Shown: positions 902 through 64,000 of the stretch, one piece after another
Numbering within the stretch: position 1 is the stretch's first letter
Layout of the letters: every line of letters begins with the position of its first letter
Source of the DNA: Tetradesmus obliquus
Lineage: Eukaryota; Chlorophyta; Chlorophyceae; Sphaeropleales; Scenedesmaceae
Assembly: GCA_030272155.1 (NCBI GenBank)
Contig: CP126200.1
Location: forward strand, 1,984,001-2,048,000
Reading direction: 5' to 3'
DNA length: 64,000 nt
Program-made: the position numbers and the translations under genes
Notes under the pieces: generated by a model
The model's database searches: none
What the model saw: only the letters and a program-made list of their open reading frames with translations
What the model was told of the DNA's origin: nothing

Positions 902-3900
902 TCAGCCCAGCTGAGTGCTGGGCAGGATCCTATGTGTATGCAGCGTCCATCCTGCTGCTGCTTCATCATTTGCACCTGCAGCAGCTGCTGCTGCTGCCGC
1001 TGAACCTGGCTCTGCCCGCAGTGCTGCTGCAGCGGCTGCTATGGAAAGTGGCGTGTTGTCTGCAGCGTTGGAAGGCCCACCCCTGAGTGGCAGCGCCAGT
1101 GGCTTGCTGCTGTGCCGCTTCTGCCACATCTGCTGCTCTATGCTCAGCACACGCAGCTCCTGCGAGGCAAGCACATTTGCAAATCACACTGCAGCATCAC
1201 TGCACCATATATATACTCTTCCTTAGTGACCGTACTGTATGCTCTACAGCATTGAAGGTGCTTAGTTTTGCATTTCCTTGGTCCTCAGAACCCACGAGCC
1301 ATACAATGTCATCCTTCTCCCGTACAGCAGCAACAGCACATGCTAAGCTCTCCAGGCATCCCTTGCAGCCATGCAAGTTTGGCCAGCATGCGCTGCCACT
1401 TAAGGATTAGTTGCGGCGAGACCCACATCCACTGGCGACACAGCAGACTATCAAACACGCTACTAGCCCACTCCAGCTGCTGGCCACTGCTGCTTGCCCA
1501 AACCACAAATCACATGCAGATCACCCCCTGGAAGCCCTGCCGCACATCATGGAGGTCACTGAGGCACATCCTGGCAGTACAACACAGATACACATAACAG
1601 TCCTCTTCACAAAACAAGCCCAGGCCCCCTGCTCCCACCTGGAAGCCCTGCCGCACATCCTGGAAGTCCCTGAGGCACGGCTGCCTGTCCATCCTGGCGC
1701 GCCACTGCTCTGCACGGCTTACAGACACCTGCACCAGGAAACAGCACAGACTCAGGCTTTACCAGCAGGCTTCACCGGCAGGCTGTGTCAGCTCAGGATG
1801 GAGCTCCTCAGGCGCTGCCCGTAGTGCCTGGTCATACTCCCGCTCCTGGAAACACCATTAGGACGATGCCAACGCACAAGCTCTCTACTTGAAGCGAGCG
1901 GATGCACAGGAGCAACAGCATGGAATGAGCATGATGATCACACAAGACACTCCTGCTGTTGAATAGAAAGTCCTCAGCGGCTTGCAAACATTGCTTTTCA
2001 ATTAATTTCAAAAGGTGCTTGCCTGCGGCTCCAGGCCCGTCAGCGCTGCGCTGCCCCACAGGTAGGCCAGGTAGGCAGCCTGCAGCGCCAGCTCACCAGC
2101 CTCCTCAGGAGACAGCAGCGCAGCCAGCAGCGGCAGCCCACAGCCCTCCTGCAGCAGTTGGCACACCAGGCGCGGCAGGACTACAACTGTCACCTTTGTT
2201 GCCAATTGCAAAGTGAACACACGGTGCAGAGGGTTGCAGTCGTTGTGCAGGGTTTTCACGTGTTCAACAGATGTCCCTCTGGTAACTGGCACTGCAAAGC
2301 CGTGATCAAGCACTGCAACCGTGGGGCTGTAGTTTCAGGTGATGCCGTCCTTGAACAGCAACGGTGCTGCTGTACACATGCAAGCCAGCACATTCAGCAG
2401 GATGCAGGTATGCAGTCACACAGCTCCAAATACATATGTAGTCACCTGCGCGGCTGGTGGCAGCTGCAGTGTGGTGCGCCGTGCAGCTGCCTGCTGCGAC
2501 AGCGCTGCCATCACTGCTGCCTCCACTCCTAGCTCCTGCAGCTGCCTGGCACCCCGCTCGATGCCCACCAGATCAGCAGCAGTGGGGTGCGGGCTGCAGC
2601 GCATAAAGCAGCAGATGCCGATGTCATGTGCAGTCATGTGCTATAAATACCACAGCAGCTTCCGGCTGGCTTGTGCAGGAGGTACCACCATGTTATGACT
2701 GGCAGAAGCAGCCACTCAGCAAGCAGTGTGAAGGGGGTGGCATTGCTGACTGGCCCACCTGGTGGGAAATGTGCCTGTCCCTGCAGCTCTTGACTGCCAG
2801 CCAGGGCAAGCCGCACTGCTGCTGCTGCTGCTGGCATGCCCATACAAAGCTTGTTCCTGCAGGATGCAGCGCAAGCACAACACCAATCACAGCAGTTCAA
2901 ATCAGCCCAAGCGCCATCCGAAAGACGCGTGTCTGCTGCACAACGCTGCAACAGATTAGCCAAGCAATTTGCAGAGGTGTGAGCACAGCCCTGCCCTGTG
3001 CGCAGCAGATACCGCAATGCCAAGTCGCACCTTGCGCTGCTGTAGCAGGGCGCAGACGTGCTGTGCTGACTGTACGATTGCGCTGGTGGGTGGTGCGAGA
3101 GCCCTCCAGTAGGCAGCTTTGCTGGCAGCAACCTCTGCATACAGCCCAAACTGGTGTGCCAGCTCCTGCACAAATTAAATATTGAATATTCTGTTTCAGC
3201 ATGCTGTGCGTCAGATGCTTTTGCTGGCGGCTGCATGTGTGCAGAGTGATGCTGTATGGACTGGCTGACAAGCGGCAGCACCTGCTCCAGCATCACCTGT
3301 CATACGTTCAGAAACAATTATTGCAATGCTGCCGATGTTGCTACCATAGCAGCAGTAGGGTTAACATGGTGCCAGAACCCACATGTAACTATCCTTCATC
3401 ATAGCACGAGTAGGGGCACCATGCTGCACCACCCCCGCGTGCAATGCTCGAGCTGCTGGATGCAGTCAAGCCTATCCACTTGCTGGCATCAGCCATGGCC
3501 ATGCCGCCTCACCCAGTAGTGTGCCAGCCATGCACACTGCAGCAGCACCGCCTGCAAGGCAGCTGACTCTGCAGGGCAGGCAATGCAACAGCAGCGGCTT
3601 TGAAGATTGAGCAGAAAAAGCAAAACTTGCAGGAAACCGGGAGCATGTGTGCTGGCACCAAGTGGCCTGTGCAACTGCTGGTGCAGGTTGGACGCTGCTG
3701 TGCTTGTCCTTTCTTAGAATTTACGTTGCACAACATCAAGGTGGCCACATAGCCGCTAGCACAGGTGCAGCACAAGCATCACATTCTTTACAGGAAAACT
3801 CTACTGCCGTGATCTGCAAAAGAAACAATGTACAGTATGCGGAGCACACCTGCCAAACACTGCGCGCGGGTGCAGGGTGCATCTGCTTCCTGCAAGGCAT

Positions 3901-5783: not shown

Positions 5784-8700
5784 ATGGAAAAAGCGCTTCT
5801 AAGCTTGCTGGTAGCGTGCATGCTGCTGGCAGGCGTTGTGGCCAGGCCAACCCCACCTAGCAGCGAAGAGGAGAAGCAAGTGCAAAGCGTGGTGGCCAAG
5901 GCGAAGCAGGCTGGCTACAAGAACACAGAGCCATTGATTGGTATTCTTACGCAGCCATGCAGCGACTGCCCGGGCAGGTACGTACGCGGATACAGGCTGC
6001 CAGGCTGTAACCACGTGAAAAGTAGCTGCTCAGGGTACCCGGCGAGCTGACGGCGTTCCATGGCACGTATCGCAGGTCCTACATCGGTGCTAGCTATGTG
6101 AAGTGGGTGGAGTCTGCTGGAGGTCGTGTGGTGCCCATCAGGTGAGCAGCCAGCTGCAGCAGAAGGGTAGTTGCAAGCTGCTTGGCAGTACACAAGAAGC
6201 GCTGACTGCTGAATGCCGTTGCAGGTTCTACGCATCAGACAAGGAGCTGTACAGGCTGTTCAAGTCTGTGAATGGTCTGGTGTTGCCGGTGAGTCAGCAT
6301 TCAGGATGGCCGTGAGCAGCAACAGCAGCAGCACACGCAGTCGTGCACAACCTTGCTGCACCAGATCAGCTGCATGTTGCAGTCATACGTCTCCTGCAGG
6401 AGCGGTGCATGTTATGCTATCGTGCTATAGCTGTCCTCAGGGTAGCTGATCAACATGATACCTTGGAGGCACTACAGAGATTACTCTGTTCACCAGATCA
6501 AACAGCGGGTTTCACACAAACATCTGCTGCACCTGCCACAATGCCTGTTGCCCTGCGCTGCTGCTGTCCCATGAACGCTTGCACCCTGCAGGGCGGCCTC
6601 ACCTGGTTGTGGCTGGATGCCCCCTACGTCATCACAGCGCGCAAGCTGTTCAATTGGGCCATCCAGGAGAATGACAAGGGCAACCCTTTCCCTGTGAGTG
6701 CCAGGCAGCAGCAGCAGCAGCACAGCCGCACTAGATAGTATGCGCAACAGCCCACAGGCCCTCTCATTGGTTGCTGCTTGGCTGCCAGCGTCACCAAGTG
6801 CCTGCTGCACACCAGGGTTAATAAACACGTAAACAATTGCTTCCTTCCTAAACCTATCGCGCCCCTCTCTTATTTTCTTTGCTACACACATACAGATCCA
6901 CGGCACCTGCCTGGGCTTCCAGCTGCTGCACATCCTGGCCTCTGATCTGCCTCTGACCAAGTCCATTGTATCCCTCCGCCTCTCTCTGCTCAAAACATTG
7001 CCATGCACAGATCCACGGCACCTGCCTGGGCTTTCAGCTGCTGCACATCCTGGCCTCCAACGTGTCCCGCAATGACCTGCTGGTCGAAACAGACAGCGTG
7101 AGCCACCCCAGCACGCTCATCTGGCCGGCTGACGGCGCGGAGCAGCGCAGCCGCATGTTTGGCAACCTGCCGGTGAGAAGCAGCAGCTCGTGCCATGGAT
7201 CTGGTGTCTGGGTGCATGTAAAGATGGACAGTCTAGCATGAAAAATGCAAAGCTGTGCACCTTCAAGCATAGCTGGACCAGGAGTTTGGCATGTGTAGAG
7301 CTGGGCAAGAGTGCTTGCGTTGCTTGCAAAGATTGTAGCGCAGCCGCATGTTTGGCAGCTTTGGCAGTGAACGGCGGCCTGCAACCAGCCGCGTGTTTGG
7401 CAACCTGCCGGTGAGTTGGACGCTCAACACAACAGAAGCTGCAGCAAGGTGCTGTGGATATGTTTGGAGAGTCTGGCGCCAAATTGCAAGCCATGCTTGC
7501 AGATCCCTCTCACCTGTCGCAGGCCAACCTGCACGCCAAGCTCGCACAACCCATCTGGGCCACTTTTACACTCTGCCTTGAGTTTCATGAGTTTCTCTGG
7601 TACTGAAACCTGCTTTGTTTGTGCCCTGTTTCTGTGATGCAGGCTGACCTGCACGCCAAGCTTGCGGATCCCACCCAGAACATCGTACTGCCTTGTCCTC
7701 TGTTCAGGTCATAACCATTGCTAAATCCTGCCAGCAACAGCACTGAATCCCTGAATCTGCTCCATTTCCCTGCCACAGGCTGACCTGCACGCCAAGCTTG
7801 CAGACCCTACCCAGAATATCGCGCTGCAGAACCACGAGTACGGCATGCCTCCTGCCTTCTACCAGCGCTGGCCTGTGCTGGGCCAATGGTACAGCATCCT
7901 GTCCACCAGCAAGGACAGGAACGGCCTGGAGTACATCAGCACAATGGAGGGCAAGAAGTACCCCTTCACAGGTGAGAGGTCGGGTTTGTTGATGTCAGGG
8001 TAAGCAAGGCTGCTGTTACAGACTTGACCAGGTGCAACTGCTTGCAGCCAGCAAAGTTCACAAGAAGGGCTACAAGCAGGCTCATTGGCAAGCGTGCATG
8101 CACCATGAGTGCGTTCGCACACTCTCTTCGTCGCATGGCGTGTTGTGCCTGTCACAATCAGCAGTTGGTGCCTGCAATGCACCGTATGTTCTTTTTGCAC
8201 CTCTATGCAGCTAGTACCTGTCGTACTCAGGCTTATGCCGAGAGTCCTCCCACGCACTTGTTCCTGACTTCACTCAAGTTGTTATGTTTCATGTTGTGCG
8301 GCGCACAGGTGTGCAGTGGCACCCCGAGAAGCCCACCAGTGAGTTTGTCATCCTGGTGCTGTTTGCTGAATTGAACGCTTTGATCCATGTGCTGTTTCTA
8401 TTTATGCCCCGCAGGCGTGCAGTGGCACCCCGAGAAGCCCACCAGTGAGTTTGGCATGCCAGAGATCCCCCACACGCTGGACGGCGTGCGCGTGGGGCAG
8501 CATGTGGCCAACTACTTCATTGACACAGCACGCTACAGCAGCCACAGGCCTGAGAGTAACGAGGAGGAGCTGGCCATGCTCATCTACAGCACGCCTCCGG
8601 TGTTCAGTGCACGCTTCGAGGTGAGCGCTTGACAGGCTGGCTGTTATATGCGAGTTTGCTGGCATGTTTGAAGCAAGCACAATGCTGAGGAGGATGGTTA

Positions 8701-10137
8701 CAAACGTGCAGACCTCTGCTCTTGGGTTCTTTGAGTGGATTATAGCAGTCTGTTTGAAGGTTCGGACATGTGCTTGGTACCTAGCAGAGCGACAGCAGCC
8801 ACAGGCCAGAGAGTAATGAGGAGGAGCTGGTCATGCTCATCTACAGCACACCGCCTGTCTTCAGCGAGCGCTTCGAGGTGAGAGCAGGGCTATAATAATT
8901 GGCTGCTACTTGCGGCTTTCCTGGCGGGATTTAAGCAAGCATGGTGCAGAGGACATTCACTATCAGCTTGCAGTCCTCCACACTTGGGTTGACAGGGAAT
9001 GCCTACAACACGGGTGCTTGACACATAGCTGTGAACCAGCCAGCAGGCGGCACCGTCTGGCGGGCGTGAGGTGCAGCCGTGTGTGTCATGATCTGTGTGC
9101 TGCCAGCTGCCAGCCCGCAGCAGTGCGCTGCTGCTGCTCATACCCTGCAGACTCACACATGTGCTTGCTGCTGCTGCTGCTGCTGCTTTCAGACCATGGC
9201 CGAGGACAACTATGATGGACCCTACATGACCTACTACTTTGACAAGGTGCGTGCAGCATGTCGTGGCGTGCATGGCTTGTTGCTGCATGCTTACTAGCTT
9301 GTTGCTGTAAGAAACGGCTGCCACATGGCTTGCAGTGGCTGGCAGTGTGTTCGGTCAGCGATAGGTGTCGAGTATGCAGTCAATGTGCTGACGTCTTGTA
9401 TGCCGTGCTGCTGCCCCTGCAGAAGACTCACCCTCCCAGTGGCCCCGATGCTGCTGCTGGACAAACCATCATAGGTATCAAGTATGCAATCAATGTGCTG
9501 ACGTCTTGTATGCCGCGCTGCTGCCCCTGCAGAAGACTCACCCTCCCAGTGGCCCCGATGCTGCTGCTGGACAAACCATCATAGGTATCAAGTATGCAAT
9601 CAATGTGCCGACGTCTTGTATGCCGTGCTGCTGCCCCTGCAGAAGACTCACCCTCCCAGTGGCCCTGATGCTGCTGCTGGACAAACCATCATAGGTATCA
9701 AGTATGCAATCAATGTGCTGACGTCTTGTATGCCGTGCTGCTGCCCCTGCAGAAGACTCACCCTCCCAGTGGCCCTGATGCTGCTGCTGGACAAACCATC
9801 ATAGGTATCAAGTATGCAATGAATGTGCTGACGTCTTGTATGCCGTGCTGCTGCCCCTGCAGAAGACTCACCCTCCCAGTGGCCCCGATGCTGCTGCTGG
9901 ACAAACCATCATAGGTATCAAGTATGCAATCAATGTGCTGACGTCTTGTATGCCGTGCTGCTGCCCCTGCAGAAGACTCATCCTCCCAGTGGCCCCGATG
10001 ATGATGAGCACGAGGGTGGCGGTGACCCTGACAGGCTCAGCAGCAGCAGCAGCAGCAGCGCAGCAGCACACAGGCTGCAGCGCTCGGACCTCCCCAGCAG
10101 CAGCAAGCGCCGCAGCCAACAGGTGGTGGAGGCATAA
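5784..10137 (+). CDS. Gamma-glutamyl hydrolase (folate polyglutamate hydrolase, peptidase C26)
   Basis: This enzyme removes gamma-linked glutamates from folyl-polyglutamates, usually in the vacuole or outside the cell. The N-terminus (MEKALLSLLVACMLLAGVVA) looks like a signal peptide. Exons chosen by frame and GT..AG: 5784-5977, 6076-6141, 6225-6288, 6592-6693, 7011-7172, 7779-7971, 8415-8620, 9193-9246, 9973-10137. They join in frame to about 401 codons, somewhat longer than the 300-350 usual for the family because of a Ser/Asp-rich tail. Early motif PLIGILTQPC is typical. GTCLGFQ (7011 exon) holds the nucleophile Cys and VQWHPEK (8415 exon) holds the catalytic His and Glu. A TGTAA signal lies at 10368-10372. 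Oddity: most introns contain extra partial copies of the exon that follows or precedes them (listed separately), so several isoforms are possible. Family assignment is firm; the isoform set is not. Confidence 0.93.
6896..7060 (+). repeat. Duplicate 3' splice site plus start of the catalytic-Cys exon
   Basis: The first 50 or so bases of the exon at 7011, including its CAG acceptor, also occur at 6896-6945 with one difference. The upstream copy encodes the same IHGTCLGFQLLHILA segment, then loses similarity. Use of the upstream acceptor would carry a second nucleophile motif. Confidence 0.85.
7143..7411 (+). repeat. Three copies of a 5' splice site with the exon end before it
   Basis: The end of the 7011-7172 exon (SRMFGNLP then GTGAG) recurs at about 7336-7364 and 7388-7410. 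The last copy is again followed by GTGAGT. These are alternative donors. The middle copy has lost the donor. Confidence 0.75.
7519..7830 (+). repeat. Three copies of the ADLHAKL exon start with acceptor
   Basis: The acceptor and first codons of the exon at 7779 (ADLHAKLADPTQNI) are also present at about 7523 (ANLHAKLAQP) and 7642 (ADLHAKLADPTQNI). Each copy follows a CAG acceptor. Only the third continues into the complete exon. Confidence 0.85.
8309..8338 (+). other. Candidate 30-nt cassette exon repeating the catalytic HPE motif
   Basis: This block lies between a CACAG acceptor and a perfect GTGAGT donor. It is exactly 30 bases and enters and leaves in the same phase. It encodes VQWHPEKPT, the same segment that begins the constitutive exon at 8415. 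Inclusion would put two catalytic His motifs in tandem without changing frame. Confidence 0.6.
8788..8877 (+). other. Candidate 90-nt duplicated exon, frame-preserving
   Basis: This is a copy of the 3' third of the 8415-8620 exon. It has its own acceptor (CTAGCAG) and donor (GTGAGA), is fully open, and is 90 bases in phase 0. It encodes a SSHRPESNEEELVMLIYST-type segment with a few substitutions relative to the parent. Inclusion would duplicate 30 residues. Confidence 0.65.
9361..9998 (+). repeat. 110-bp tandem array, six units, each with a 3' splice site
   Basis: Six units of exactly 110 bases differ at only a few sites. Each has a TGCTGCTGCCCCTGCAG acceptor (AG ending at 9422, 9532, 9642, 9752, 9862, 9972) followed by codons for KTHPPSGPDAAAGQ. 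The sixth unit runs into the true last exon of gamma-glutamyl hydrolase. Units 1-5 could act as decoy acceptors or as 52-base cassette exons ending at ATAG/GTAT. Confidence 0.95.
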
Positions 10138-13370: not shown

Positions 13371-16300
13371 TCAAGCAGCCACCAGCTCTGGCTGCACCTC
13401 AGCAACAGCAGCTGGTGCTGCAGCAGGCACTCCCTCAGCAGATGCCGGAACCGCTGCCTCTGCAGGTGCTGCTGCTGCAGCTGCGTCATCTGCAGCAGCA
13501 GTAGCAGCAGAGGCAGCTGCAGCTGCTGCTGGTGCATCCTCACCGGCTGCTACCTTATGGCTGTCTGGTGCTGCAGCAGCAGCAGCAGCAGCAGGCTGCT
13601 CTGCTGCTGGCTCGCTGCTAGCTGCCACATCCGCTGCAGCTGCTGCCGCTGCTGCTGCTGCTGCTGCACCTTCGGCTGGCTGCTCGGCGCTGGCACCCTC
13701 CGCTGCTGCTGCTGCAGCTGCTGGCGCAGTGCTGTTCTCCTGTGCCAGCCCAGCATCACCTGCCGCTGCTGCTGCTGCTGCATCAGCCGCCTTGCCGCCC
13801 TCCTGCGCCGCCGCCGCCACTGCATTCGCCGCTGCCGTACCCACTGCGCCCGCCTGCCTGTTTGCACTACCTGGCCGCTGCTGCCTGCCGCCGCGTGCCT
13901 CCTTATCTTCCTTTTCGCCCCGCACCGGGGTCTTTGAAGGTGACACGCGCAGCGGCAGCGAGCCCAGTAGGGCCCCGCTGCAGTTGAGGGCTGCCATGGC
14001 TGCCTCTGCCTGAATGAACTCAATGAAGGCGATGCGCGTGGAGTGCGCCAGGTCACCCAGCAGCCGGATCTTGTTGACTTTGCCTGCAGGGCAGTTCAAA
14101 TCACAGACACAGGGTGGTGTGTTGAGTGTAGGCACAGGACGACTGACATGGCAGAATGCAGCAGGGGCACATGCATGCACGCGAGCGAGGCCACCCAGCA
14201 GCCGGATGTTGTTGGCCTTGCCTGTGGATTGCAGTGACATTTGCGATTGTGTTGGCACAGGCAGCACACAAAGGCGGTTCAACAAGACAGCAGCAATACA
14301 GCAGCAACACAGCAATACAGCAGCAACACAGCAATACAGCAGCAACACAGAAGACGCATGTATACTTGCAGCGCGTGCTGTGCTATGCTGATTGACTCAA
14401 CATGAGGAGTCATATGTTGACTGGCTGCTCCTTCTGCTGCAATGCTCAACATATGAACGGTGGTGAATAGCTGTCAGTGATGAATTCAAATGCATGTATC
14501 CTGCACCCTGCAGCGCAGCACTCACCGCACAGCTGCTCGAAAAAGTTGCGCACATCCTCCCGCTCCACCTTCTTGTCAATGTTGGCCACGTACACCGTCC
14601 TGCAACATGCAACATGCAACAAACACACACAATGCATGGCTCAGCATCAGCTCCACGACTGCTAACAACTCCAGGCAGCCACGGTGCCCAACAGTACGGA
14701 GATGAAGCGCACATGCAGTCACATGCAGGTACAGCAGCCACCACGTCATGCTGACAAAAAAGCGGCTCGCCGTACATCTCCCAAACGATGTGTCATGCGA
14801 CTTGCCGCATACACCATGCCAGGTCAGCAAAGTGACGCAAGCAGCTGCGCCTGCCGCACCGCTCTAGCTCCTCATGGATCCCGCCACCACCTCAGAAACC
14901 ATAGCCGACACAATTTGCCGGCCAACCTGTGATACAGCCCGCCAGATACGGCCTGCCAGGCCAAACCACTGCACGCACCTGCTGCAGCGCTCCAGTTCCT
15001 CGTGACTGCGCCGCACGAGCTCCTTGTTGACCGGCACAATGGCCGTCTTGCAGTACTAGCCAGATACAACTTGCAAGATACAACCTAGAGGGGCCAACCC
15101 GCCGCACCTGCAGCAGCGCTCCAGCTCCTCGTGCGGTATCAGCTCCTTGTTGCCGACACGATGGCCGTCTTGCAGTACTAGCCAGATACTACTTGCAGAA
15201 TACAACCTAATGGGGCCAATCCGCCGCACCTGCTGCAGCGCTCCAGCTCCTCATGGCTGCGCGGCATGAGCTCCTTGTTGACTGGCACGATGGCCGTCTT
15301 GCTGGGCAGCACGCGCAGCTGGCTGGTGCCAAGCGTGCAGCCGGTCTTGTTCAGCGCCTGGCGCAGGCACGCAGCACAGGCAGCAGCAGACAACCAGGCA
15401 GACAACACATGAGACAGCAGGCAACGGAGTACTGCAGCTGGCTATTAGCAGGAACGGCAGTAGGCTTCAAGGGCAAGTTGCAGCATGCAAACGCTGTGTG
15501 ACACCTTGCAGAGTTTCCTGCAAGCATGAACTTTCTGACCAGAGAGCGGCCAGTGTGTGACAGGCGAGTTGTCGCAACCAGGCACTCAACTGCAAGCACA
15601 GCAGCTTCCTGCAAGCAGAGCTGCGTCCTGCAAGCATACCACCACCCTGCCATGCCAGCCGGCACCACACACGCACGTATCATCCATCCGCAGGGCTTTA
15701 AGCCAGCACAGCAGCAGCAGCAGCAGCAGCTCACCTCCTGTGCTCCCGCCTCCTCCAGGAACTCGATGAAGGCGAAGCGCATCGCGCTGTTGGGGTCGCC
15801 GCAGATGCGGCAGTCCATCACAGTGCCGCAGTCAGCAAAGAACGTTGCCAGCGACTCCTCAGTCACCTGCAGCAGCCGCATGCATGCGCAAGCACACGGC
15901 ATGTATCCGTAAGTGCCGGCCGTTGCTACAGCGGTATTGTCAGGGACACAGTGCCTACTTCAAGCAGCAGGGCAAGCGTGCTCTTACAGGGTGCTGCCTG
16001 CGCAGCTGCACACATAATACCGTCCAGAACCCATAGGCAGCATGGCTGTGTGCAGCTGCAAAATTCAGCTGCCACCGAGGCTGCTTGCAGGATAGCTCAT
16101 TATGCTCGCATCACAGGGCTTGTGATCCACATCTACCGGCAACCCATCAGCTTGCAGGATTGGCTTGCAGGATTAGTGTATTCAAGCAACTTGTTGCCAG
16201 CGACCCAGGCAGTGCTGCTGGATTTGGCGGTGACTCTCACTGCAAAATACAACAGCGCCGCCTGGGTCGCTGGCAACAAATTGCTTGTTACACTCGCAGG

Positions 16301-19053: not shown

Positions 19054-21889
19054 CTGGTACAAGGCAGCTGCAGCAGCCATGTCCCAGGCTGCCTCATATG
19101 CCTACCTGCTGCTGCTGCTGCTGCGGCTGCTGCTGCTGCTGCTCGACCTGACAGTGCCTCAAGAACGCTAGCTACCTGCTGCTGCTTCTCTGCTGCTCCT
19201 GCTCCTGCTGTTGCTGCTGTGCTGCGCTGCGGCGCCGCAGTGGCTGCAGTCACAGCAACAGCAACGCTGTCAGCTGCTGCTGCTGCCTCATGTGTCCAAG
19301 CTGGGAAGGCAGCAGGGTCCAGCAGCTGACCTCCAGCATCAAGATCCATGCTGCTGCTGCTGCTGTCGCCGCTGCTGCTGCTATGTGCATGGCGTCGCTT
19401 CCTCTTGTGGCGATGTTTGCTGCTGTGCCGTCTGCGTTTGTGTGCCTTTCGTGCGCTTGCTGAGTCATCACTGCCCTCATCAGAACTGCCACTACTGCTG
19501 TGCTTGCGGCGTTTCCTGCCCTTCTGCTCATGCTTGCTGCGTTTCCTCTTCTTGCTGCTACGCTGTTTCTGCTGCTCCTTGTGGCGGCCGTCTGTGGGAG
19601 CAGCAGCTGCAGCAGCAGCAGCAGCAGCAGCATAGCCTCGCCTAAGAGGCAGCTTTGAAGGCTGCTCAGGCTGCTCAGGCCTAGCCTCACCGCCAGGTTC
19701 AGCAGCTGCTCCTTGCGGCTGCTGCTGCGGCTGCTGCTGCTGCTGCTGCTGTGCCAAATCAAAACTGCAGCTGAATGCTTTCACCACCTGGTTGGCTGCT
19801 TGAGGCCCATCAGCAGCAGCCAGCAGCAGCTGCAGCCGCAGCAGCCAGCCCAGCAGCAGCAGCTGCAGGTGCTGACGTGGCCAGTCTGCTGCTGAAGCTG
19901 ATACTGCATCAGCCAGCTGCTTCAAGCCTGCTGCTTCTGCTGTGCCTTGCTTAGCTCCTCCAGCTCCTGCATCCTCTCCTGCTGCTGCTGCTGCTGCTGC
20001 TGTTGGCTGCCCAAACAGCTGCTGTGCAGCCGCCACCAGCTGCAGCAGCTGCTCTGCCTCATCCTCCTGCTGCAGCAGAGACAGCAGCTGCTGCCTGCGG
20101 CACGTGAGTGCATTCACCAGCAGCAGCTGCTCCAATGACCATTGCTGTGTGCTGGGGCTCAGCACTAGCTCAGCAAGGTGCTGCACACAAGGCAGCTGAC
20201 TGGCAGCTGCAGCAGCTGATGAGCCTGCTGCTGTTGTTATTTCAGCCGAGTCATTGAAGGCAGCTTGCTGGTCTAGCCATTGCCACACATTGCCCAGCTG
20301 CTGCTGCTGGCGCTGCCTGCCCTGCAAGCTGCTGTTCTGTGATACCCCCTGCTGCTGCTGCTGCTGCTGCTGGTGTTGTGCCACTATGCGTGCAAAGGCC
20401 AGCAGCTGCTGCTGCGGCAGCAGCGGCAGCAGCCTGTTGCAGAGCAGCGTCCAGTCAGCGTCTGCCAAGAAGCTGCGCACCAGCTGCCTCAGGGCCGCAT
20501 GGCGGGAGGAGCGGGGCTCATGCAGCAGGCGGTGCAGCTCCTGCAAGGCAAGAACAAAAGGAAGTGCTTGAAGGAAGGCACAAGAAGCAAGGGAGGACCA
20601 GCCTCAGGGCAGCATGGCTGGAGGAGTGGGGCTCGTGCAGCAGGCGGTGCAGCTCCTGCAACACAAGGGTCGGAGGAGTATCACAGGTTAGAGGACTTAC
20701 AGTTGACCCTTTGTAAGGAGTGGGGCTCATGCAGCAGGCCGTGCAACACAGCAACAAACGGAAGCGCTTGAAGGAAGGCACAAGAAGCAGGGGAGGCATG
20801 TGAGCAGGCATCTCCTCTGCACAGCCACCACACGCACATGCAGCAGCCTGCAAGCACCCTACCTGCAGCACGAGCTCGTGCTCCAGCGCCATCCACCGCC
20901 CGCCCCCGCAGCAGCCATCAGGCATCATTGTTCGCTACAACACACCTGCAGCACTGCAACTGCCAAACGCACCTGCAGCACTCCAACCGCCAAACGCACC
21001 TGCACCACTAGCTCAGGCTCCAACGCCAGTCAATCCCCGCTGTTGCAGCAGCCGCCAGCAAACACACACAGCACTGTACAGCAATGAACCACAAGCAGCA
21101 CTGCGCAGCAACCCAGCGCACCTGCACCACCAGCTCCGGCTCCAGCGCCAGCCACTCCCCCGCTGCAGCAGCAGCGCTCCAAATACGCAGCACCCCACAG
21201 CCACTGCGCACAAGTACAGCACGGCACAACAACCGAACGCACCTGCACCACTAGCTCCGGCTCCGAATGCAGCCACGCCCTGCTGCAGCAGCAGCGCGCC
21301 AGCATACACACACAGCACCCCACAGCCACTGCGCACAAGTGCAGCACTCCACAACCACCAGAAACACCTGCACCACTAGCTCCGGCTCCGAATGCAGCCA
21401 CGCCCTGCTGCTGCAGCAGCACCCCGAATACGCAGCACCCCACAGCCACTGCGCACAAGTGCAGCACGGCACAACCACTAGACGCACCTGCACCACTAGC
21501 TCCGGCTCCAATGCCAGCCACTCCCCATTGCTGCAGCAGCGCGCCAGCTCCTCGCTTGCCCAAAATAATGCTCTACAACTGCGCTGGACTGTAATGCACC
21601 ACGCACCTGCACCACTAGCTCCGGTTCCAGCTGCAGCCACTCCCCGGTGCTGCAGCAGCGGCCCAGCTCCTCACTGGCCCAGAAGCCGGGGCAGTGCCGT
21701 GCCAGTGCCAGCAGCGTGCGGTCAACGTCCAGCTCAGCAAAGTAGTGCGGCCGTGCGGCAACAGCGACAGGGGCCTGCGGGTACAGCAGCAGCAGCAGCA
21801 GCAGCAACAGCGCCAGCAGCGTGCGGTCAACATCCAGCTCAGCAAAGTAGTGCGGCCGTGCAGCAATTGCCACAGGCGCCTGCGGGTAT

Positions 21890-21938
<49 letters not shown>

Positions 21939-22119
21939 ACAGCAGCGCCAGCAGCGTGCGGTCAACATCCAGCTCCGCAAAGTAGTGCGGCCGTGCAGCA
22001 ACCACAACCGGGGCCTGCGGGCACAGGTCCATCACAGCAGCAGCATCGAGGTGCGGTCAACGTCCAGCTCAGCAAAGTAGTGCGGCCGTGCGGCAACTGC
22101 CACAGGCGCCTGCGGGTGT

Positions 22120-22157
<38 letters not shown>

Positions 22158-23472
22158 GCGGTCAACGTCCAGCTCAGCAAAGTAGTGCGGCCGTGCGGCA
22201 ACTGCCACAGGCGCCTGTGGGTATAGCAGCAGCAGTGGCAGCAGCAGCAGCAGCGCCAGCAGCGTTCGGTCAACTCCAGCTCAGTAATATAGTGCGGCCG
22301 CGCAGCAACAGCGACAGGCGCCTGCGGGTGCAACAACAGCAGCAGCAGTGTGTGAGCGGTCAGCAGGCCTGCGCACACAACTACAACCAAACTGCCTTGC
22401 ATGCAAGCACAAATCCATACTGTTGTCACACTTTGTTGCAGGACATGCCAAGACATGTGCACAACACTTGCTATGTATCACTCGCAACGCCTGCCACCCA
22501 CCTGATCGTGCTTGCCTGCCCACACCAGCAGCTGCCACACCTCACTGCGGTTTGTCAGCGCGTAATTGGCCAGCGCCCTAGCTCCATGCTTGAAGTGCTG
22601 AATGCCAGCCAGCGAGAACTGCCCAAACCATGCAGCAGTTGTTGCAGGGGAGCCTGTGAGGCAGCTGCAGAGGAACTTTGGGTCTTGTGACAGCAGCGCA
22701 GCGACGGCCGCGGGCTGTGCGCTGCACAGCAGCTGCAGCAGCTGCAGCACTGCTGGCTTGCAGGAAGCTACTGGGCTGGGCCCCTGCTGCTGCTGCTGCT
22801 GCTGGGGTGAGCGCCTGCTCCTGCTGCTGCCTGTTACCCGCTCCTGTGCGTCATCTCTGCGATGGACGCTGCTTCCTGCATATCTCCTGTTGTTATTTGC
22901 ATAAATGTAACTGTTATCCAGGTCGTCTTGATGACGGAGGTTACTGCCTGCCAGGCTGCAAGGGTCGAAGCATGTGATGCGCAGTGATGGTGGGGTGTGC
23001 TGCTGCTGCTGTTCAGCGATTGTGCTGGTGAGCCATGCCTTGGCTTCTCCACGGTTGTTGGGGTCATCCTGCAGTAAAAGCGTGCATAAAGCGTTCTGTC
23101 AGGATTTACCACAGCAACGCAGCAGCAGCTACCATGCAGCTAGCAGGACAGCTGCATGACAGCTGCAAACTGCAACATGACTGCATACTCTGTATTGTGA
23201 TCTGAACATCTGTGCGACCACTGCTGTAATCCTTCCGTAAGCAGTAAGCCTGTACAGTCGGTGCTGTATCAAAGGCAGCAGAAGAGTGCCAATGTTACCC
23301 TGCACGCTTCACATGCTGCTCTGTGGCGCAGGCGCAGCTGCTGCTGTATAAATGCTGGGCAGAGGCGAGCAAGGGCAATGAAATAGAACCTCACAAGCAA
23401 GGTGTGACCGACGGCAGTTTGTGCTGCTGCCAGAGCGTCTTGGATTTGTTGCACAGTCAGCTGCTGGTCCAT
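18897..23472 (-). CDS. Unrecognised large protein with basic Ser/Arg/His-rich region
   Basis: I do not recognise this family. The start is the ATG at 23472 (MDQQLTVQQIQDALAAAQ). A second exon is open from about 23070 to 22500 and carries helical Leu/Ala-rich sequence (PAVLQLLQLLCSAQPAAVA..LFLCSCLTG-like). A third exon, about 21775-21607, encodes RPHYFAELDVDRTLLALAR..EWLQLEPELVVQ. The last exon runs from about 20539 to 18897: LHRLLHEPRSSRHAALRQLV first, then long Gln tracts, then a lysine/arginine/serine/histidine-rich stretch (KRKRSKHEQKGRKRRKH) that looks like a nuclear localisation or RS-like region, then Ala-rich sequence. The joint ELVVQ/ELHRLL keeps frame. Inferred nuclear protein of roughly 850-900 residues, with alpha-solenoid-like helices. 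Three exon-edge arrays interrupt it. Confidence 0.55.
20516..20770 (-). repeat. Three copies of the acceptor end of the last exon
   Basis: The start of the last exon (acceptor TTGCAG, then ELHRLLHEPRSS) at about 20539 recurs upstream in the transcript at about 20660 (ELHRLLHEPHSSSHAAL) and about 20755 (HGLLHEPHSL). The copies lie within the preceding intron and progressively lose similarity. Confidence 0.85.
20990..21660 (-). repeat. About 120-bp tandem array, six copies of an exon end with donor
   Basis: Six copies with starts near 20998, 21118, 21239, 21365, 21486 and 21603 encode GEWLALEPELVVQ followed by a GTGCG donor on the minus strand. Some intervening copies are altered (AFGAGASGAG frame). 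The copy at about 21650-21607 is continuous with the upstream exon and is taken as the parental one. A more diverged seventh relative (GRWMALEHELVLQ) lies near 20910-20870. Confidence 0.9.
21715..22345 (-). repeat. About 100-130-bp array, six copies of a 3' splice site and exon start
   Basis: Each unit on the minus strand is a CTG run, a CCCGCAG acceptor, then codons for APVAVAARPHYFAELDVDRT. Unit starts lie near 21719, 21825, 21958, 22055, 22157 and 22267 on the plus strand. Spacing varies with the CTG-run length. The copy at about 21780-21720 runs into the full exon. The CTG tract seems to serve as the tract before each acceptor. Confidence 0.9.
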
Positions 23473-55038: not shown

Positions 55039-55856
55039 TCACGCCCGCGCTCCATCCGCCTGTACTGCTGGCCTACTACCACCCCGCTGCTGCTGCCGCT
55101 GCTCCTGCCGCTGCTGCCCCTGCTGCTGCCGGCCCCTGCCGCCGCCATTGCTGCCGCAGCTCACCCCTCCCACCCCCTGCTGCCGTGGCGCTGCTGCAAC
55201 TGCTGCCTTCGGCAACCCCGGGAACTCGCCTATCTCTGCTTCCCTGAGCGGTTTAAACTGCTCAGTAAGCCCTACACCCAGGCCTGCTGCTGCTGAACCC
55301 TGAACCCCACGCAGCGCCGCCAGCCTGTCTGCCAGCGCCCATCCGCTGAGCACCGCTGATTGCAAGCTGGCTCCAGTGAGCCAGTCCCCACAGACGCCCA
55401 CACGCGCTTGTGCGTCTAGAATGCAGGGCACGTTGGGGATGTTGGTGGGCAGGGCGGCGCCCCACAGCTGCACCCTGCACAGCAGCAGCAGACAACCAGT
55501 GGTGATTAGGTTATTAAAGACATTCGAAAGATGCAGGGAACGTTGGGGGTGTTGGGGGGCAGGGCGGCGCCCCACAGCTGCACCCTGCACAGCAGCAACA
55601 ACAGCAAGCATTGTACAGGTCAGGCAGATCCAGAGCCAGTGAAAGAAAGGAAGCGGGCAGCAAGCGGGCAGCACCTGCGTGTGGGCAAGACAACTCAGAA
55701 ACGAGGGCTATTATCAAATGCCTCTGACCCACACACCTGGTGAAGACAACTTTGGGCAGCTGAACCGCTGCTGGCCCCAGCAGCGCCGCAAAGGCTGCCA
55801 GCATCTCCGCAGTGACCTTGGCAGCCACATCAGCTGGCACCTTCTCCTGAGGCACC

Positions 55857-55889: not shown

Positions 55890-56636
55890 AGTGCTGATGA
55901 ATGTCAAAGGGACCACTAACAAATACCCCCACCAGCAGCAGCAGCAGCAGCAGTGCTGCCCCTGCCCAGCCTTCTCCGACGCACCTTGTTTGCCTGCCCA
56001 TATGTGTCTGTGCTGATGAGCGTCCAGCACTGCAGCCCCTCATACGGCTGCGGGTGCACCAGGCCCAGCTTGGCGCTGTTGTTTGACGCCCAGCTCAGCA
56101 CAGGGCTGCCCTGCACAAATGCACCTGCAGCAATAACAAAGTAACAGAGGCGTAAGAAGGCAGCAAACCACCAATCAGGTTGAAGTACATGACCGCACGA
56201 CAAGGCTCACCTGCCATGCCCCCAGGCACGTCCACGGGGCTTTCCAAGGCCACCATGAGGGCCCACAACGCAGCTGTTCTGCCTTCCCCTGGCGCCCCCC
56301 ACCCCAACCTAGGTGGCACGTTTTCCAAGCCTGCACACCAAACCCCGCCTCTTGACTCACCTTCCATGCCCCCAGGCACAGCCACAGGCCCCTCAAAGGC
56401 AACCATAAGGGGCCCACACCGCACCCACATTGCATGGCCCCTGGCGCCACCACCCCAACGTAGCTGACATGTGTTTTAAAGCCTGCACACCAAACTCCAC
56501 GTCTTCACTCACCTTCCATGCCCCCAGGCACAGCCACAGGCCCCTCAAATGCAACCATGAGGGCCCACACCGCGCTCAGCCGCAGCCGCATCAGCTGCCG
56601 CGCAACATCGGGCGCACCAGTGGGGCCCACCAGCCT

Positions 56637-56928: not shown

Positions 56929-58437
56929 GCAGCAGCAGCAAAAACAGGCTATTGATGCAGTACTTCAAGTGATCAAACGCATACAACATGGGAGATGGAA
57001 GCTGTCACATGTTCAGGAGTTAATGTTGATGATCTCGTGCACCACACACCAGGAGGAGGTGCAAGCCAACGTCAGCAGCAGCAGCAGCCCCAGCAGCAGC
57101 AGCAGCAAGCCGCTCACCTGTTTGGCGCACTTGTTGTTGTGTGCAATCACCACAGCGCCACTGCTGATGACCTACAGCCAGAGATACGAAGGGAAGTTGC
57201 AAGCAGACAGGCAATGAGCAGCAGCTGCTGCAGCAGCAGTAAGCCGCTCACCTGTTGGCGCACTTGCCGTTGTGTGCAATGACCACCGCGCCAAAGGTTC
57301 CCTGCCCCTTGTTGTTGCCTGTCAGCTGCCAGCCGTTGCTGCTGTGTGCAGCAGTCATGCGGGACACCCACATGGGGCGAACCACTGACACGCCGCCAGA
57401 GGAAGACACGACAGCCTGGAAGCAGCGGCAGCCGCAGCAGCAGCATTGCGCAAGCATGTCAGAACAGGCAGCCTGGGCTATGCAGCACTTGACCAGCACA
57501 TATTGCTAGCTGTACTGCAAGATCCATTTGTGGCAGCCAGTATCAAAATCCTTGGAGTGTGCCATACTGCTGCTGCTGCTGCTGCTGCCGCCGCCGCACC
57601 TCGTCCGCCATGTGCTGTGCCAGCTGCCGCATGCCGCCAGTGGCCACGTACAGCGGTGTGGCATCACCCAGCGGCTCAAAGGCGCCGCCAGGCCTCAGCA
57701 CACCCACTGGGCCCTGCCAGCGCTGCACCACACCTGCGGCAGCAGTGGAATAACATAGCAACATAACACGAGATAACATACGACAAACATGATGCAAGTG
57801 GGGGTCCTTGCTGCCTCGTTGCATGTTGGGTGCACTGCGCGGGTGCTGAGTAATTGGGTGCAAGCACCCAGCCCATACATGCAAAAGACCTTCAGGCTGC
57901 GCCAAAACTGGCAGCAGCAACGATCACCGTTACACATATGAGCAGCCTGTACTCCTGCTAGCCAAAGCAAGCCGATCCTCCAGCAGCATATCAACCCAAT
58001 GCTATCTCTCTCACCTGCTGCTGCCAGCCAGGGCTGCCCCTGCTGCCAGAAAACCGGAAGAGCATCACAGGTGCATACTGGTAGATAGATAGAGGGGTGT
58101 GTACTGGTGGCCTTCAGGCTAAGGCTGAACTGGCATCAGTTATCACCACCATAGGGATGCACAATCAAGCCAACTGCTGACCAGTACCAACTATACTCCA
58201 ATCACCCACCTGCTGCAAGCCAGGCCTGCACCTGCTGCTGGAACGCCGGATCTGTTGCAGTGAAGCACTGAGCAGCATGGTCAAACCTGAGGTTTAGGTT
58301 TTTGACTGCTGCGAGGCTTGGGCTGATCCATTTGGCATGCAGCGAGGCATCGCTGCTGCTGCGTGTGGCTGCCCTGCCCCCCACACCGTGCTCTCCGGTG
58401 TCGAATACTACTGCACGCATGCCGTGGCGGGAGAGGC

Positions 58438-61051: not shown

Positions 61052-61140
61052 TCACCGCAGAATTAAACCCCGCAGCTGCCCTGCTGCTGCCAAACCTCCC
61101 TGCTGCTCATCCCTCCCCTCCCCTGCACCACCTCCCACCC
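60898..61140 (-). repeat. Duplicate of the 3' terminal segment of the last gene
   Basis: Bases about 60903-60970 and 61070-61135 share CAGCTGCCCTGCTGCTGCCA and following sequence with few changes, about 168 bases apart. The right copy includes the end of the coding frame (GLAAAGQLRG); the left copy lies beyond the stop. Confidence 0.8.
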
Positions 61141-64000
61141 CCGCACCTCCCCTCCTCCCACCCTGCTGCTTCCCCGCAGCAGCCACATACGCCGCCAGGA
61201 AAGGGTGCTGCATGCTGCCCAGCTGCAGCCGCCGCCCCTGCTGCAGGTTCTGCCGCATCAGTGCTTGCTGCTGCAGCAGCGGCCGCACAACCTTCAGCAT
61301 CCTCAAGTGCTGTCCTGCAATGCGCCAGGCCATTGCCACCCTGGGGGCGTCCACGTAGCCGTAGCTGCTGTTGCGCGCGGCTCGCTGCTGCGGGGTGAGC
61401 GCCAGCAGCTGCTGCCGCTTCTCGCGCGCAACCCTGCAACCACGGGCACGGCAGGCGGGCAGGGAGATGATATCAGGAAGCTATACCAGCCGAGATGGTG
61501 TGGTACCACAACTCCGGTGTGCACGCGGCTTTGCCTCATGCCACGACGCATGTGTGCTCAGAATGTGACACAAGTACACATACTACACATACTTCTTATT
61601 GACAGCCTACTGGCAGGTCAACTACAAATGCTTACTATCAAGCACTCTAACAGCAAGGGGATTCAACGCCTCATCACTGTCCGGATCAGTGCCCCCACTC
61701 ACTTGTACACAGCCTGGTAGCAGGCAGACGCCTCAATCCACACCTGGGGCAGGCTCAACACACTCACACCACCACCACCACCTGTTGCTGCTGCTGCTGC
61801 TGCTCCACCACCAGCCCAAACCCCTGCACCAGAGCCTGCTGCTGCTGCTGCTGTGCCGAAGGCTGCGGGTCCTCCCCAGAGCTCCAATTCGAAGCGTGCC
61901 TTGAGCGCCTGCTGCAGCTCGGCCTTCTGTTCGCTGTGCTGCTGCGCCTGTGCACGGCTGCGGCCGGCTGGGGCCTGCAGGCAAACATAAAGCACAACGC
62001 ATGCAGCGTGCTGAGTTCAGGGGAAGGAACAGCAGCGTGCCACAAGCAGCACTGTGGTTTACTGCAAAACATGTGCGGTGTGTGCGCTGTGCTGCTGCGC
62101 CTGCGCACGGCTGCGGCCGGCTTTCTGCAGCTAGGGAAGAGTGTGCGGCACAGCAGATGCAGCATGTCGGGTGTTGGGTGTCATGACTTGCAGCAGATGC
62201 GCAAAGCGTGTACTGCGCTGCTGACCTGTGCACGCCACCGGCAATATAGCGCCACTTGTTTGGCTAACAAGCACCACCGTACCAATGCGCACTACAGGAA
62301 CCCTGCATCCTGGGCGCAAGTGTGACCGCTGTCAGCACACACCTGGCTCATCAGCTGCCGCCATGCTGCCGCTACTGCATGTGCAGACCCTCCCACTTGG
62401 CCAGCAGGGGTATCAAACAAACACCTACACTGCCTAAACACTATACCCTGATTATCACCTATAATATTATTCAAAGATAAGACACCTGGCTCATCAGCTG
62501 CCGCCACGCTGCCCGCCACTGTCCATGCAGCCCCTCCCACTTGGCCAGCAGGGGGGCCACTGCTGCCTCAGGGGCACCGGACAAAACCCTAGGTCACCTC
62601 AACCCATAGTCTTAAACCCTGATGCCATGAATCAAGCCTTTCAGCCAACGCACCTGGCTCATCAGCTGCCGCCAAGCTGCCCGCCACTGGCTGTGCAGCC
62701 TCCCACTTGGCCAGCAGCGGGGCCACTGCTGCCTCAGGCAGGCCATCAGGCCCTGCTTGGACAACCAGGTCAGGGTCAAGCTGCAGCAGTGCAGGGTCTA
62801 GGTAGTCCAGTGGTGGCAGCTCATGCAGCAGGCACCACCGAGATCTGCGAACAAATGACAAAGCAACAGACGGCGCTAATCAGTTTCTACAGTGGGGGTC
62901 GAATCAGGGTCTGGCCATCAGGCCCTGCTTGAACAACTAGGTCAGGCGCAGCTGCAGCAGGGCGGGGTCCAGGTGCTCCAGTGGAGGCAGCTCATGCAGC
63001 AGGCACCACAGCGACCTGCAGGATAGCCGGAAATGCAGCACAACAAGCAGCACATGTAGGTTTCTAGAGGAGTGCAGGTGGGACCGTTGCGGCCAGCAGG
63101 CAGTGCATCAGGCCCCGCTTGGACAACCAGGTTGGGGTCCAGCTGCAGCAGTGCTGGGTCTAGGTAGTCAAGGGGAGGCAGCTCGTGCAGCAGGCACCAT
63201 AAAGATCTACAAGAAAAGGACAAGCAAACAGGCAGTGCTTATCAGTACACAAAGGGCGGGGTTGAAGTGAGGGTGTAGCAGCAGGTCAGGAGGCAGCTGC
63301 AACAGGGCGGGGTCTAGGTAGTCCAGGGGAGGCAGCTCGTGCAGCAGACACCACAGCGACCTGCAGGATAGCCGGAAATGCAGCACAACAAGCAGCACAT
63401 GTAGGTTTCAGGAGGAGTGCAGGTGGGACCATTGCGGCCAGCAGGCAGTGCATCAGGCCCTGCTTGGACAACCAGGTTGGGGTCAAGCTGTAGAAGCGAA
63501 GGATCTAGGCAGTCCAGCGGTGGCAGCTCGTGCAGCATGCGCCAAAGAGATCTGCTAACAAGCGCAAAGCAACAGGCAGTGGTGACCAGTTTCAGAGTGG
63601 GGTCAAATCCAGGGTCTGGCCATCAGGCCCTGCTTGAACAACTAGGTCAGGGGCAGCTGCAGCAGGGCGGGGTCCAGGTAGTCCAGTGGTGGCAGCTCAT
63701 GCAGCAGACACCACAGCGACCTGCAGGACAGCCAGAAGAGGAAACAAGCAGCACGTGTTACATTTTGCCAAGGTACGCCAGTGGGGCACAGCGGACCTGC
63801 ACTTGACTGCGCTGCAAGTGATGATCACAGAAGGCGACAGGCGTATTCGACATTCGACCGGCAGGAGCAATTGTTACTACACTGCGCTAGCATCGCAGCA
63901 GCTGTCAGCCGTGAGGAAGGCAGCAGCGCTCCAGCCCCACCTGATGATGTTGCTGCATCAAGGGCGCAAAGAGGCGCGAAGAAAAGAGATCAACCTAGGT
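61052..64000 (-). CDS. Unrecognised gene with repeated exons, runs off the right edge
   Basis: I do not recognise the family. The last exon is about 61432-61052: VAREKRQQLLALTPQQRAAR, then VAMAWRIAGQHLRMLKVVRP and a Gly/Arg-rich tail ending LRGLILR. Before it is about 61978-61705 (AELQQALKARFELELWGG, a Gly/Ala linker, LSLPQVWIEASACYQAVYK), and about 62845-62645 (SRWCLLHELPPLDYLDPALL, LQLDPDLVVQAGPDGLPEAA, LLAKWEAAQPVAGSL). Upstream the same LLHELPPLDYLDPALL segment is repeated several more times. The conserved-looking helical segments suggest a real soluble protein, perhaps organellar. The 5' end is outside the window. Confidence 0.5.
61890..62135 (-). repeat. Duplicate acceptor edge (RAQAQQHSEQ segment)
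   Basis: GCTGCTGCGCCTG.GCACGGCTGCGGCCGG occurs at about 61940-61971 and 62089-62120, about 150 bases apart. The left copy continues into the coding exon. Confidence 0.8.
62340..62725 (-). repeat. Three copies of the LLAKWEAA..AADEPG exon end
   Basis: The segment encoding LLAKWE..LAAADEPG lies at about 62720-62650 (with the full exon), 62560-62487 and 62410-62342. Each is followed in the transcript by a GTG donor-like site. Divergence is moderate. Confidence 0.85.
62740..63725 (-). repeat. Six copies of the LLHELPPLDYLDPALLQL exon
   Basis: Copies are centred near 62800, 62965, 63160, 63325, 63500 and 63675, at spacings of roughly 155-195 bases. Most have an acceptor (TCTTTGCAG/TGCAG-like) before RSLWCLLHELPPLDYLDP and several continue to QLDPNLVVQAGPDALP. 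Some could be spliced in tandem as repeated exons, others are decoys. Only the copy nearest 62800 continues into the next conserved segment. Confidence 0.9.

What the first reader, a model, noticed from the sequence alone, without database searches (positions are those of the whole stretch)
1525..63725. Window-wide tandem duplication of exon edges together with their splice sites
Six recognised or strongly supported intron-bearing genes plus the poorly defined gene at 0.9-5.2 kb (about 20 sites) contain 2-6 tandem copies of a short block that spans an intron-exon border: a 3' splice site plus the first 30-80 exon bases, or the last exon bases plus the donor. Copies are diverged to different degrees, so they were made at different times and are not one assembly error. 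Usually only one copy joins the rest of the exon; the others sit in the adjacent intron or in the 3' flank. The largely single-exon leucine-rich repeat genes lack them. This looks like an ongoing process that lengthens introns and makes decoy or alternative splice sites. Tandem duplication across a splice border is a proposed route to new introns, but this density on different genes in one 64 kb stretch seems exceptional.
Basis: partly seen in the sequence, partly recalled or inferred. Interest (0 to 1): 0.9.

Follow-up and report, generated by a model that had tools for sequence, protein, structure and literature searches.

The report
Stray exon-edge copies fill alga's introns
In the sampled parts of a green alga's genome (most likely Tetradesmus obliquus) about one predicted exon edge in six has extra, partly decayed copies of itself lying nearby, mostly in the neighbouring intron, apparently left by repeated small DNA duplications that the splicing machinery skips over, which gives a natural setting for testing how introns grow.

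Summary
The window (C10 of a 104.66-Mb, 17-contig genome, most likely Tetradesmus/Scenedesmus obliquus) holds 24 sites of local direct repeats, many spanning an exon border with its splice site, in 2-6 copies. It is not special to the window: in 20 ten-kb stretches on the ten largest contigs 57/328 exon edges (17%) have a copy within 1 kb against 12/294 intron edges (4%); the window gives 20/99 and 7/83. Copies are direct, lie mostly in the adjacent intron, and usually keep the AG or GT. Acceptor copies mostly lack a nearby donor, so they do not look like spare exons. In the D1 protease gene (protein 385/387 identical to a crystallised one) the copy joined to the exon body is the one used. Likely mechanism: recurrent tandem duplication (units about 100-260 bp) across exon borders, tolerated because a lone splice site defines no exon. 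Extra copies evolve far more loosely than used ones. Unexplained: exon sides are found about four times as often as adjoining intron sides; neutral simulations give 1.4-1.8. I saw no sign that these duplications make new introns. New variant of a known kind; the scale is the surprise.

The parts
7011..7172 (+). gamma-glutamyl hydrolase exon (used copy; starts IHGTCLGF)
   Evidence: Open frame within the Peptidase_C26 match; my gene finder starts it too late, at 7,038
6892..6942 (+). copy of the acceptor (ACAG) and first 47 nt of that exon, 115 bp upstream, 98% identical
7337..7410 (+). two copies (7,337-7,365; 7,386-7,410) of the end of exon 7,011-7,172, each followed by GTGA, in the following intron
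7523..7546 (+). first acceptor copy of exon 7,779-7,971
7643..7685 (+). second acceptor copy of exon 7,779-7,971 (4 synonymous, 0 amino-acid differences)
8309..8351 (+). acceptor copy of exon 8,415-8,620
8792..8877 (+). copy of the last 86 nt plus donor of exon 8,415-8,620; has an AG at its 5' side and was called an exon by my gene finder
9361..10006 (+). young array of 5.8 copies of a 110-bp unit (intron part, acceptor, first 28 nt of last exon 9,973-10,137)
14050..14083 (-). acceptor edge of an RRM-gene exon (used copy)
14188..14221 (-). its copy in the upstream intron
20601..20749 (-). two acceptor copies (20,601-20,655; 20,716-20,749) of exon edge 20,486-20,540
21000..21562 (-). five donor-side copies of exon edge 21,607-21,681
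22051..22321 (-). three acceptor copies of exon edge 21,920-22,014
40154..40192 (-). acceptor copy of exon edge 40,020-40,058
41120..41222 (-). donor-side copy of exon edge 41,356-41,458
55531..55584 (-). acceptor copy of exon edge 55,421-55,474 (gene with weak amine-oxidase match)
56211..56411 (-). two donor-side copies (56,211-56,271, also predicted as exon; 56,361-56,411) of exon edge 56,513-56,573
57119..57160 (-). donor-side copy of exon edge 57,252-57,293
61068..61125 (-). acceptor copy of exon edge 60,905-60,962
62081..62127 (-). acceptor copy of exon edge 61,928-61,974
62343..63724 (-). dense mixed array: donor-side copies at 62,343 and 62,486, acceptor copies up to 63,657, further repeats to 63,724
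1528..1567 (-). donor-side copy of edge 1,639-1,678 in the poorly defined first gene

Best explanation
Genes of this alga undergo frequent local tandem duplication with units of roughly 100-260 bp. When a unit straddles an exon border, one copy stays joined to the exon body and keeps working; the other lies in the adjacent intron with a lone acceptor or lone donor. A lone site without a partner at exon distance defines no exon, so the extra copy is removed with the intron and the event is nearly harmless. Serial events make arrays of 2-9 copies and lengthen introns. The extra copies then decay, the intron part first and the exon part last. Shown: the copies, their orientation and position, the missing donors behind acceptor copies, their looser evolution, and their presence on contigs other than the window's. 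Inferred: tandem duplication as the birth event in diverged cases, exon definition as the reason for tolerance, and that the copies are spliced out. Not explained by this model alone: the extra durability of the exon side.
For: Direct, hardly any inverted, repeats. Young arrays duplicate intron part and exon part together, e.g. 110 bp x 5.8 at 97%. Acceptor copies lie upstream in 69 of 82, donor copies downstream in 60 of 74. Exon edges 57/328 vs intron edges 12/294 in the 20 stretches, locus-bootstrap ratio 3.0-7.6. Of 91 acceptor copies 22% have a strong donor at +20 to +140, control intron 42%; no clear sign of read-through: frame open 42/137 vs 64/274 in the other two frames, offset divisible by 3 in 34/137. 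Used copy strongly constrained, extra copies not: changes unique to the used copy 45 silent / 10 amino-acid, unique to an extra copy 94 / 128. D1 protease protein contains the copy joined to the exon body; the ligase in L016 and the complex I ESSS subunit in L023 align collinearly with homologues when each edge is taken once. AG kept in 32/32 acceptor copies at 28-30/30 identity, 31/38 at 25-27, 14/20 at 23-24; GT in 24/28, 24/32, 8/20, which I read as neutral loss.
Against: Exon-side copies outnumber intron-side copies 115 to 28 (ratio 4.1, locus bootstrap 2.7-13.0; 375 of 571 sites usable), neutral simulations give 1.4-1.8. Among pairs with exon identity of at least 28/30, 39 of 58 have intron windows under 0.70, against 12% in the neutral simulation, though copy flanks of this kind still look like real splice sites: acceptor score 1.94 vs 3.01 used and -1.80 for intronic CAG in general. 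Acceptor pairs differ by silent changes more than a neutral extra copy predicts: ratio 0.27 (0.21-0.33) where I estimate about 0.53; donor pairs 0.46 (0.30-0.68) fit. Only 2 of 113 copies have an in-frame stop where 5-17 were simulated with three quarters of the differences neutral, 1-8 with one quarter; 6 of 175 in the wider set. The lone-site argument is shown for acceptor copies only: donor copies have an acceptor-like site ahead as often as control intron (68% vs 67%). Fewer pairs at 30/30 (12) than at 28/30 (31).
Confidence: 0.6

Rival explanations
1. Extra copies are working alternative splice sites (or regulated unproductive ones) and are kept by selection together with their exon edge.
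For: Silent-site bias at acceptor copies (0.27), stop deficit 2/113, splice-site scores far above background even where the intron flank has diverged, exon side more durable than neutral decay allows.
Against: Few donors behind acceptor copies, no clear frame preference; AG/GT loss tracks divergence; changes unique to extra copies are mostly amino-acid changing, 128 to 94 silent, against 10 to 45 in used copies.
Confidence: 0.15
2. Duplications join two diverged versions of the same locus (alleles in an outbred or hybrid strain), so copies differ at birth: exons alike, introns different, splice sites intact.
For: Explains at once diverged intron flanks, silent-site bias, intact splice sites and the deficit of 30/30 pairs. 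Two whole-gene Lhcbm-like paralogues show the same pattern, exons 97-99%, introns 63-77%. One S. obliquus strain, DOE0152z, was assembled at 208 Mb, nearly twice UTEX393 (PMC5552973, passages seen).
Against: Silent-site bias is much the same in pairs with similar and with diverged introns, where this model predicts a difference. Needs very large allelic intron divergence; an array with 8 extra copies needs many alleles.
Confidence: 0.12
3. Exon-limited gene conversion (for example templated by spliced RNA) keeps overwriting the exon part of copies while introns drift.
For: Identity falls at the splice site (partly an effect of how pairs were chosen); same pattern in Lhcbm-like paralogues.
Against: By my reasoning conversion alone does not lower the amino-acid to silent ratio below about 0.53, yet acceptor pairs show 0.27; does not explain retained splice-site scores.
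Confidence: 0.08
4. Assembly artefact: pieces of two haplotypes strung together.
For: Copies look allele-like; I had no reads.
Against: Wide range of ages, an array with 8 extra copies, a clean 110-bp array, repeat sites in 17 of 20 stretches and border copies in 12 of 20, contigs of 4.4-11.1 Mb where lengths were shown.
Confidence: 0.05

Closest known systems
Tandem duplication across an intron-exon border in a potato RNA-dependent RNA polymerase gene (PMC4974935; passages incl. abstract seen)
   Different: One gene, and it made a new intron using a cryptic donor; here about one sampled edge in six, and donors behind acceptor copies are depleted.
[quoted passage not shown] Hellsten 2011; reviewed in PMC3443670, passages seen)
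   Same: Local duplication involving splice sites.
   Different: Here the duplicated piece is an existing border; no clear excess of such intron end-repeats.
Internal gene duplication in eukaryotes (Gao and Lynch 2009; cited in the passages of PMC4974935 and PMC3443670, paper itself not read)
   Same: Small duplications inside genes, including introns.
   Different: Copies here are partial exon edges left in introns, not added protein segments.
Tandem exon duplication with mutually exclusive splicing (recalled)
   Same: Neighbouring copies of exon sequence.
   Different: Acceptor copies here mostly carry only one splice site.
Introners (PMC9860276, passage seen; the words Scenedesmus and Tetradesmus do not occur in its held main text)
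   Same: Genome-wide intron change in fast-evolving lineages including green algae.
   Different: Spacers did not look like a dispersed family in the sampled sequences: 8 of 97 have a hit in another sampled locus, by my reading mostly low-complexity; not tested against the whole genome except for one intron.

Membership tests
[quoted passage not shown]
[quoted passage not shown]
   204 of 236 predicted introns (32 CAG-rich ones dropped): 1 vs 1 and 3 vs 1 in mismatched controls
[quoted passage not shown]
   No relative genome held
Mutually exclusive duplicated exons | Each copy has acceptor and donor | tested here: not met
   Acceptor copies: strong donor behind 22% vs 42% in control intron. 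For donor copies the test says nothing: acceptor ahead 68% vs 67%
Mutually exclusive duplicated exons | Copies spliced in as alternatives | not testable with these tools
   No transcript data
Mutually exclusive duplicated exons | Both copies evolve under protein constraint | tested here: inconclusive
   Extra copies much looser than used copy but acceptor pairs are biased to silent changes
Introners | Near-identical spacer sequence dispersed through the genome | tested here: inconclusive
   8 of 97 spacers hit another of the 31 sampled sequences, about 0.3 Mb of 104.66 Mb, too little to see a family of moderate size; one intron tested genome-wide holds a dispersed 68-bp piece
Neutral tandem duplication relics | Intron part duplicated with the exon part | tested here: inconclusive
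   Clear in 19 of 58 close pairs (0.70 or more); in pairs with flanks at or under 0.65 only residual likeness: 0.47 vs 0.34 acceptor, 0.45 vs 0.27 donor, 38 each
Neutral tandem duplication relics | Exon and intron parts persist as neutral decay predicts | tested here: not met
   Ratio 4.1 (2.7-13.0) against 1.4-1.8 simulated

The most novel reading that the evidence does not exclude
Exon edges in this genome are copied, or kept, as units bounded by the splice site: the cell has an exon-bounded copying or correction process (for example guided by spliced RNA), or splicing itself selects for spare edges, so that introns become stores of near-intact alternative splice sites.
Probability: 0.2. Interest if true: 0.85.

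Novelty: new variant of a known kind. Interest (0 to 1): 0.62.

Why it matters
Intron growth and intron birth by duplication are usually argued from single old cases. Here a culturable alga appears to carry very many such events of graded age (68 repeat sites in 200 kb, would mean tens of thousands if the sample stands for the genome), each a natural experiment on how splicing ignores or uses a spare site, when a duplication is harmless, and how introns lengthen. It also warns that gene prediction in this genome can mistake copies for exons, as my own gene finder sometimes did.

Tried and rejected
Spare-exon reading: rejected for acceptor copies, for lack of donors and frame. Translation through the spacer: not favoured, offset not enriched for multiples of 3 and frame mostly closed (the difference 42/137 vs 64/274 was not tested). 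Spacer as a dispersed element: not seen in the sampled 0.3 Mb, not excluded genome-wide. The 68-bp repeat in the GGH intron lies between the used donor edge and its copies and is dispersed; of the 5 other loci looked at, one (L036) has a 79-bp direct repeat (77%) on both sides of it, the others no strong one; whether L036's is a border copy was not determined; no Rfam match in window 7,000-7,500. CAG/CTG triplets just beyond the blocks: not enriched, 0.260 in copies, 0.281 in used exons, 0.280 random. Three Lhcbm-like genes as a test of copies in paralogues: no border copy in their self-comparisons (one intron-internal pair in L042, one 63% pair in L043), so the test whether copies stay conserved between paralogues was not possible. 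The sharp step at the splice site is partly an effect of choosing pairs by exon identity; I rely instead. A first gene-finder run drifted into CAG repeats and was replaced. Gapped identity per column was useless (null 0.75-0.79) and dropped.

Literature: eight searches (listings seen) listed no report of this in Tetradesmus or Scenedesmus; two S. obliquus genome papers do not contain the words tandem or intron in the held main text (passages). Most subscription papers are not held.

Full report
What was checked. The window is G000:C10:1984001-2048000 of a 104.66-Mb genome in 17 contigs. Joined exons of a gene on C3 match the crystallised photosystem II D1 protease 1fc7 at 385 of 387 residues (two substitutions in the alignment); that the crystal came from Scenedesmus obliquus (now Tetradesmus obliquus) is recalled. 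Published strains are about 109 Mb (UTEX393) and 208 Mb (DOE0152z) (PMC5552973, passages).

The repeats. BLAST of the window against itself gives 61 direct pairs and no inverted pair within 3 kb. With other settings, low-complexity CAG/CTG pairs removed, the window has 24 sites and 20 ten-kb stretches (at 1.00 and 4.00 Mb of the ten largest contigs) have 68 sites in 200 kb, 17 of 20 stretches having at least one; the stretches have 176 direct and 14 inverted pairs, the inverted ones in 5 stretches (L008, L009, L010, L012, L014) (my sums). The density is thus alike: 0.375 per kb in the window, 0.34 per kb in the sample. C11-C17 were not sampled this way.

Gene models. No annotation or transcript was at hand, so I wrote a small hidden Markov gene finder, seeded with the D1 protease and hydrolase exons and retrained on 31 sequences (window, 20 stretches, L034, and 9 loci found by searches). 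On the D1 protease, which was among the seeds, it places 7 exons; the starts at 2,655 and 3,070 are later than the protein requires, the first exon is shortened and the last misses the stop. In the window it starts one hydrolase exon 27 nt late. It sometimes calls copies exons. Three genes were checked against proteins: D1 protease, glutamate-cysteine ligase in L016 (collinear with 9ufc over 266 residues) and the complex I ESSS subunit in L023 (9f5x; the Pfam match is under the cut-off). In each I took the edge once and the homologue agrees; the genes hold 1 extra copy (D1 protease), up to 5 (ligase) and 7-8 (ESSS).

Where copies lie. For 571 predicted splice sites, a 30-base probe has a copy (25/30 or better, within 1 kb) in 48/256 just inside acceptors and 42/236 just inside donors, against 9/193 and 12/238 just outside; random intron probes 186/2782, random exon probes 34/688, predicted intergenic 7/404; inverted copies are at zero at the edges. 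In the 20 stretches alone 57/328 exon edges against 12/294 intron edges (Fisher p 7e-8, sites not independent; locus-bootstrap ratio 3.0-7.6; 12 of 20 stretches have at least one), in the window 20/99 against 7/83 (p 0.035). Acceptor copies lie upstream in 69 of 82, donor copies downstream in 60 of 74; AG is present in 74/82, GT in 60/74. The nearest copy is 77 bp or more away, median 136, the middle 80% between 104 and 257 bp; 60 of 99 edges have one copy, one has eight.

What the copies are not. Of 91 acceptor copies 22% have a strong donor at +20 to +140 against 42% of control intron; donor copies have acceptor-like sites before them as often as control (68% vs 67%), so the lone-site argument is shown for acceptors only; reading from a copy to the used exon is open in 42/137, other frames 64/274; the offset is a multiple of 3 in 34 of 137. 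Acceptor copies are therefore unlikely to be spare exons, and neither kind shows a clear sign of being read through.

How they evolve. In arrays with at least two extra copies (35 after removing overlaps), changes found only in the used copy are 45 silent and 10 amino-acid changing, only in an extra copy 94 and 128; the latter is still more silent than a fully neutral copy (27% expected, p 1.6e-6), as expected if some of these changes fell on the used lineage. In arrays with three or more extra copies the extra-copy figures are 37 and 58 (my sum), nearer to neutral. Loss of AG and GT follows divergence. So extra copies are mostly released from protein constraint. Against this: used-extra pairs at acceptors have an amino-acid to silent ratio of 0.27 (0.21-0.33), at donors 0.46 (0.30-0.68), where by my reasoning a neutral extra copy against a constrained used copy should give about 0.53; and 2 of 113 copies have a stop, simulated 5-17 if three quarters of the differences are neutral, 6 of 175 in the wider set. 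The acceptor bias does not change clearly with intron likeness (0.24-0.42).

The unexplained part. Exon-side copies number 115 and intron-side copies 28 at the 375 of 571 sites usable on both sides; given an intron-side copy the exon side is also copied in 21 of 28, the other way in 21 of 115. Neutral simulations with four indel settings give 1.4-1.8 for the ratio, below the bootstrap range 2.7-13.0. Of 58 pairs with exon identity of at least 28/30, several from the same arrays, 39 have intron windows under 0.70, simulated 12%. Where flanks are at or under 0.65 they still resemble the used copy's flank more than other genes' (0.47 vs 0.34; 0.45 vs 0.27), so the intron part was probably once shared, and they still score like splice sites. 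At the young end (29/30 or better) the excess is smaller: exon edge 86/2142, intron interior 378/14752, intron edge 42/2102, exon interior 32/3058; at 26-28/30 exon edge 190/2142 against intron interior 376/14752 (overlapping probes). The exon excess thus grows with age, which points to longer survival of the exon part more than to births aimed at borders. Two whole-gene Lhcbm-like paralogues show the same contrast, exons 97-99% and introns 63-77%, so introns here may simply change very fast, by rearrangement as much as by substitution. I cannot separate fast introns, past use of the copies, allelic origin and exon-bounded conversion with one genome and no transcripts.

New introns. For 204 of 236 predicted introns (CAG-rich ones dropped) I looked for the end-repeats expected if a duplication had made the intron and found no clear excess over mismatched controls (1 vs 1, 3 vs 1). 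One Lhcbm-like gene has an intron its two paralogues lack, without such repeats.

Judgement. The best account is recurrent tandem duplication across exon borders, tolerated because the extra copy has one splice site only. This is known from a single gene in potato (RdRp, PMC4974935, passages); a genome in which about one sampled edge in six carries such relics was not listed in my eight literature searches.

Noticed in passing
Possibly a short mobile element. In L036 a 79-bp direct repeat flanks it.
   Followed up: partly
L042:1827-2074 (C14, Lhcbm-like gene): One of three closely related light-harvesting genes has an extra intron at GLAD/DPDT that the other two lack; no repeat of exon sequence at its ends was found.
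   Followed up: partly
L041, L043 (C14): Two light-harvesting paralogues have nearly identical exons but strongly diverged introns, with the change at the splice sites.
   Followed up: partly
window 9361-10006: A clean, young 110-bp array (5.8 copies, 97%) that includes the last exon's acceptor: a marker for copy-number variation between strains.
   Followed up: no
L023, acceptor at 4995 of the reverse strand: Used acceptor plus seven extra acceptor-and-exon-edge copies (eight with a looser limit) in one intron of the complex I ESSS-like gene, the largest array seen.
   Followed up: partly
window 52335-53318: Degenerate repeats of about 81 bp and multiples; looks like a repeat protein, not border copies (not checked further).
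   Followed up: no
window and sampled loci: CAG/CTG triplet tracts are very common in introns and exons and mislead repeat and splice-site searches.
   Followed up: partly
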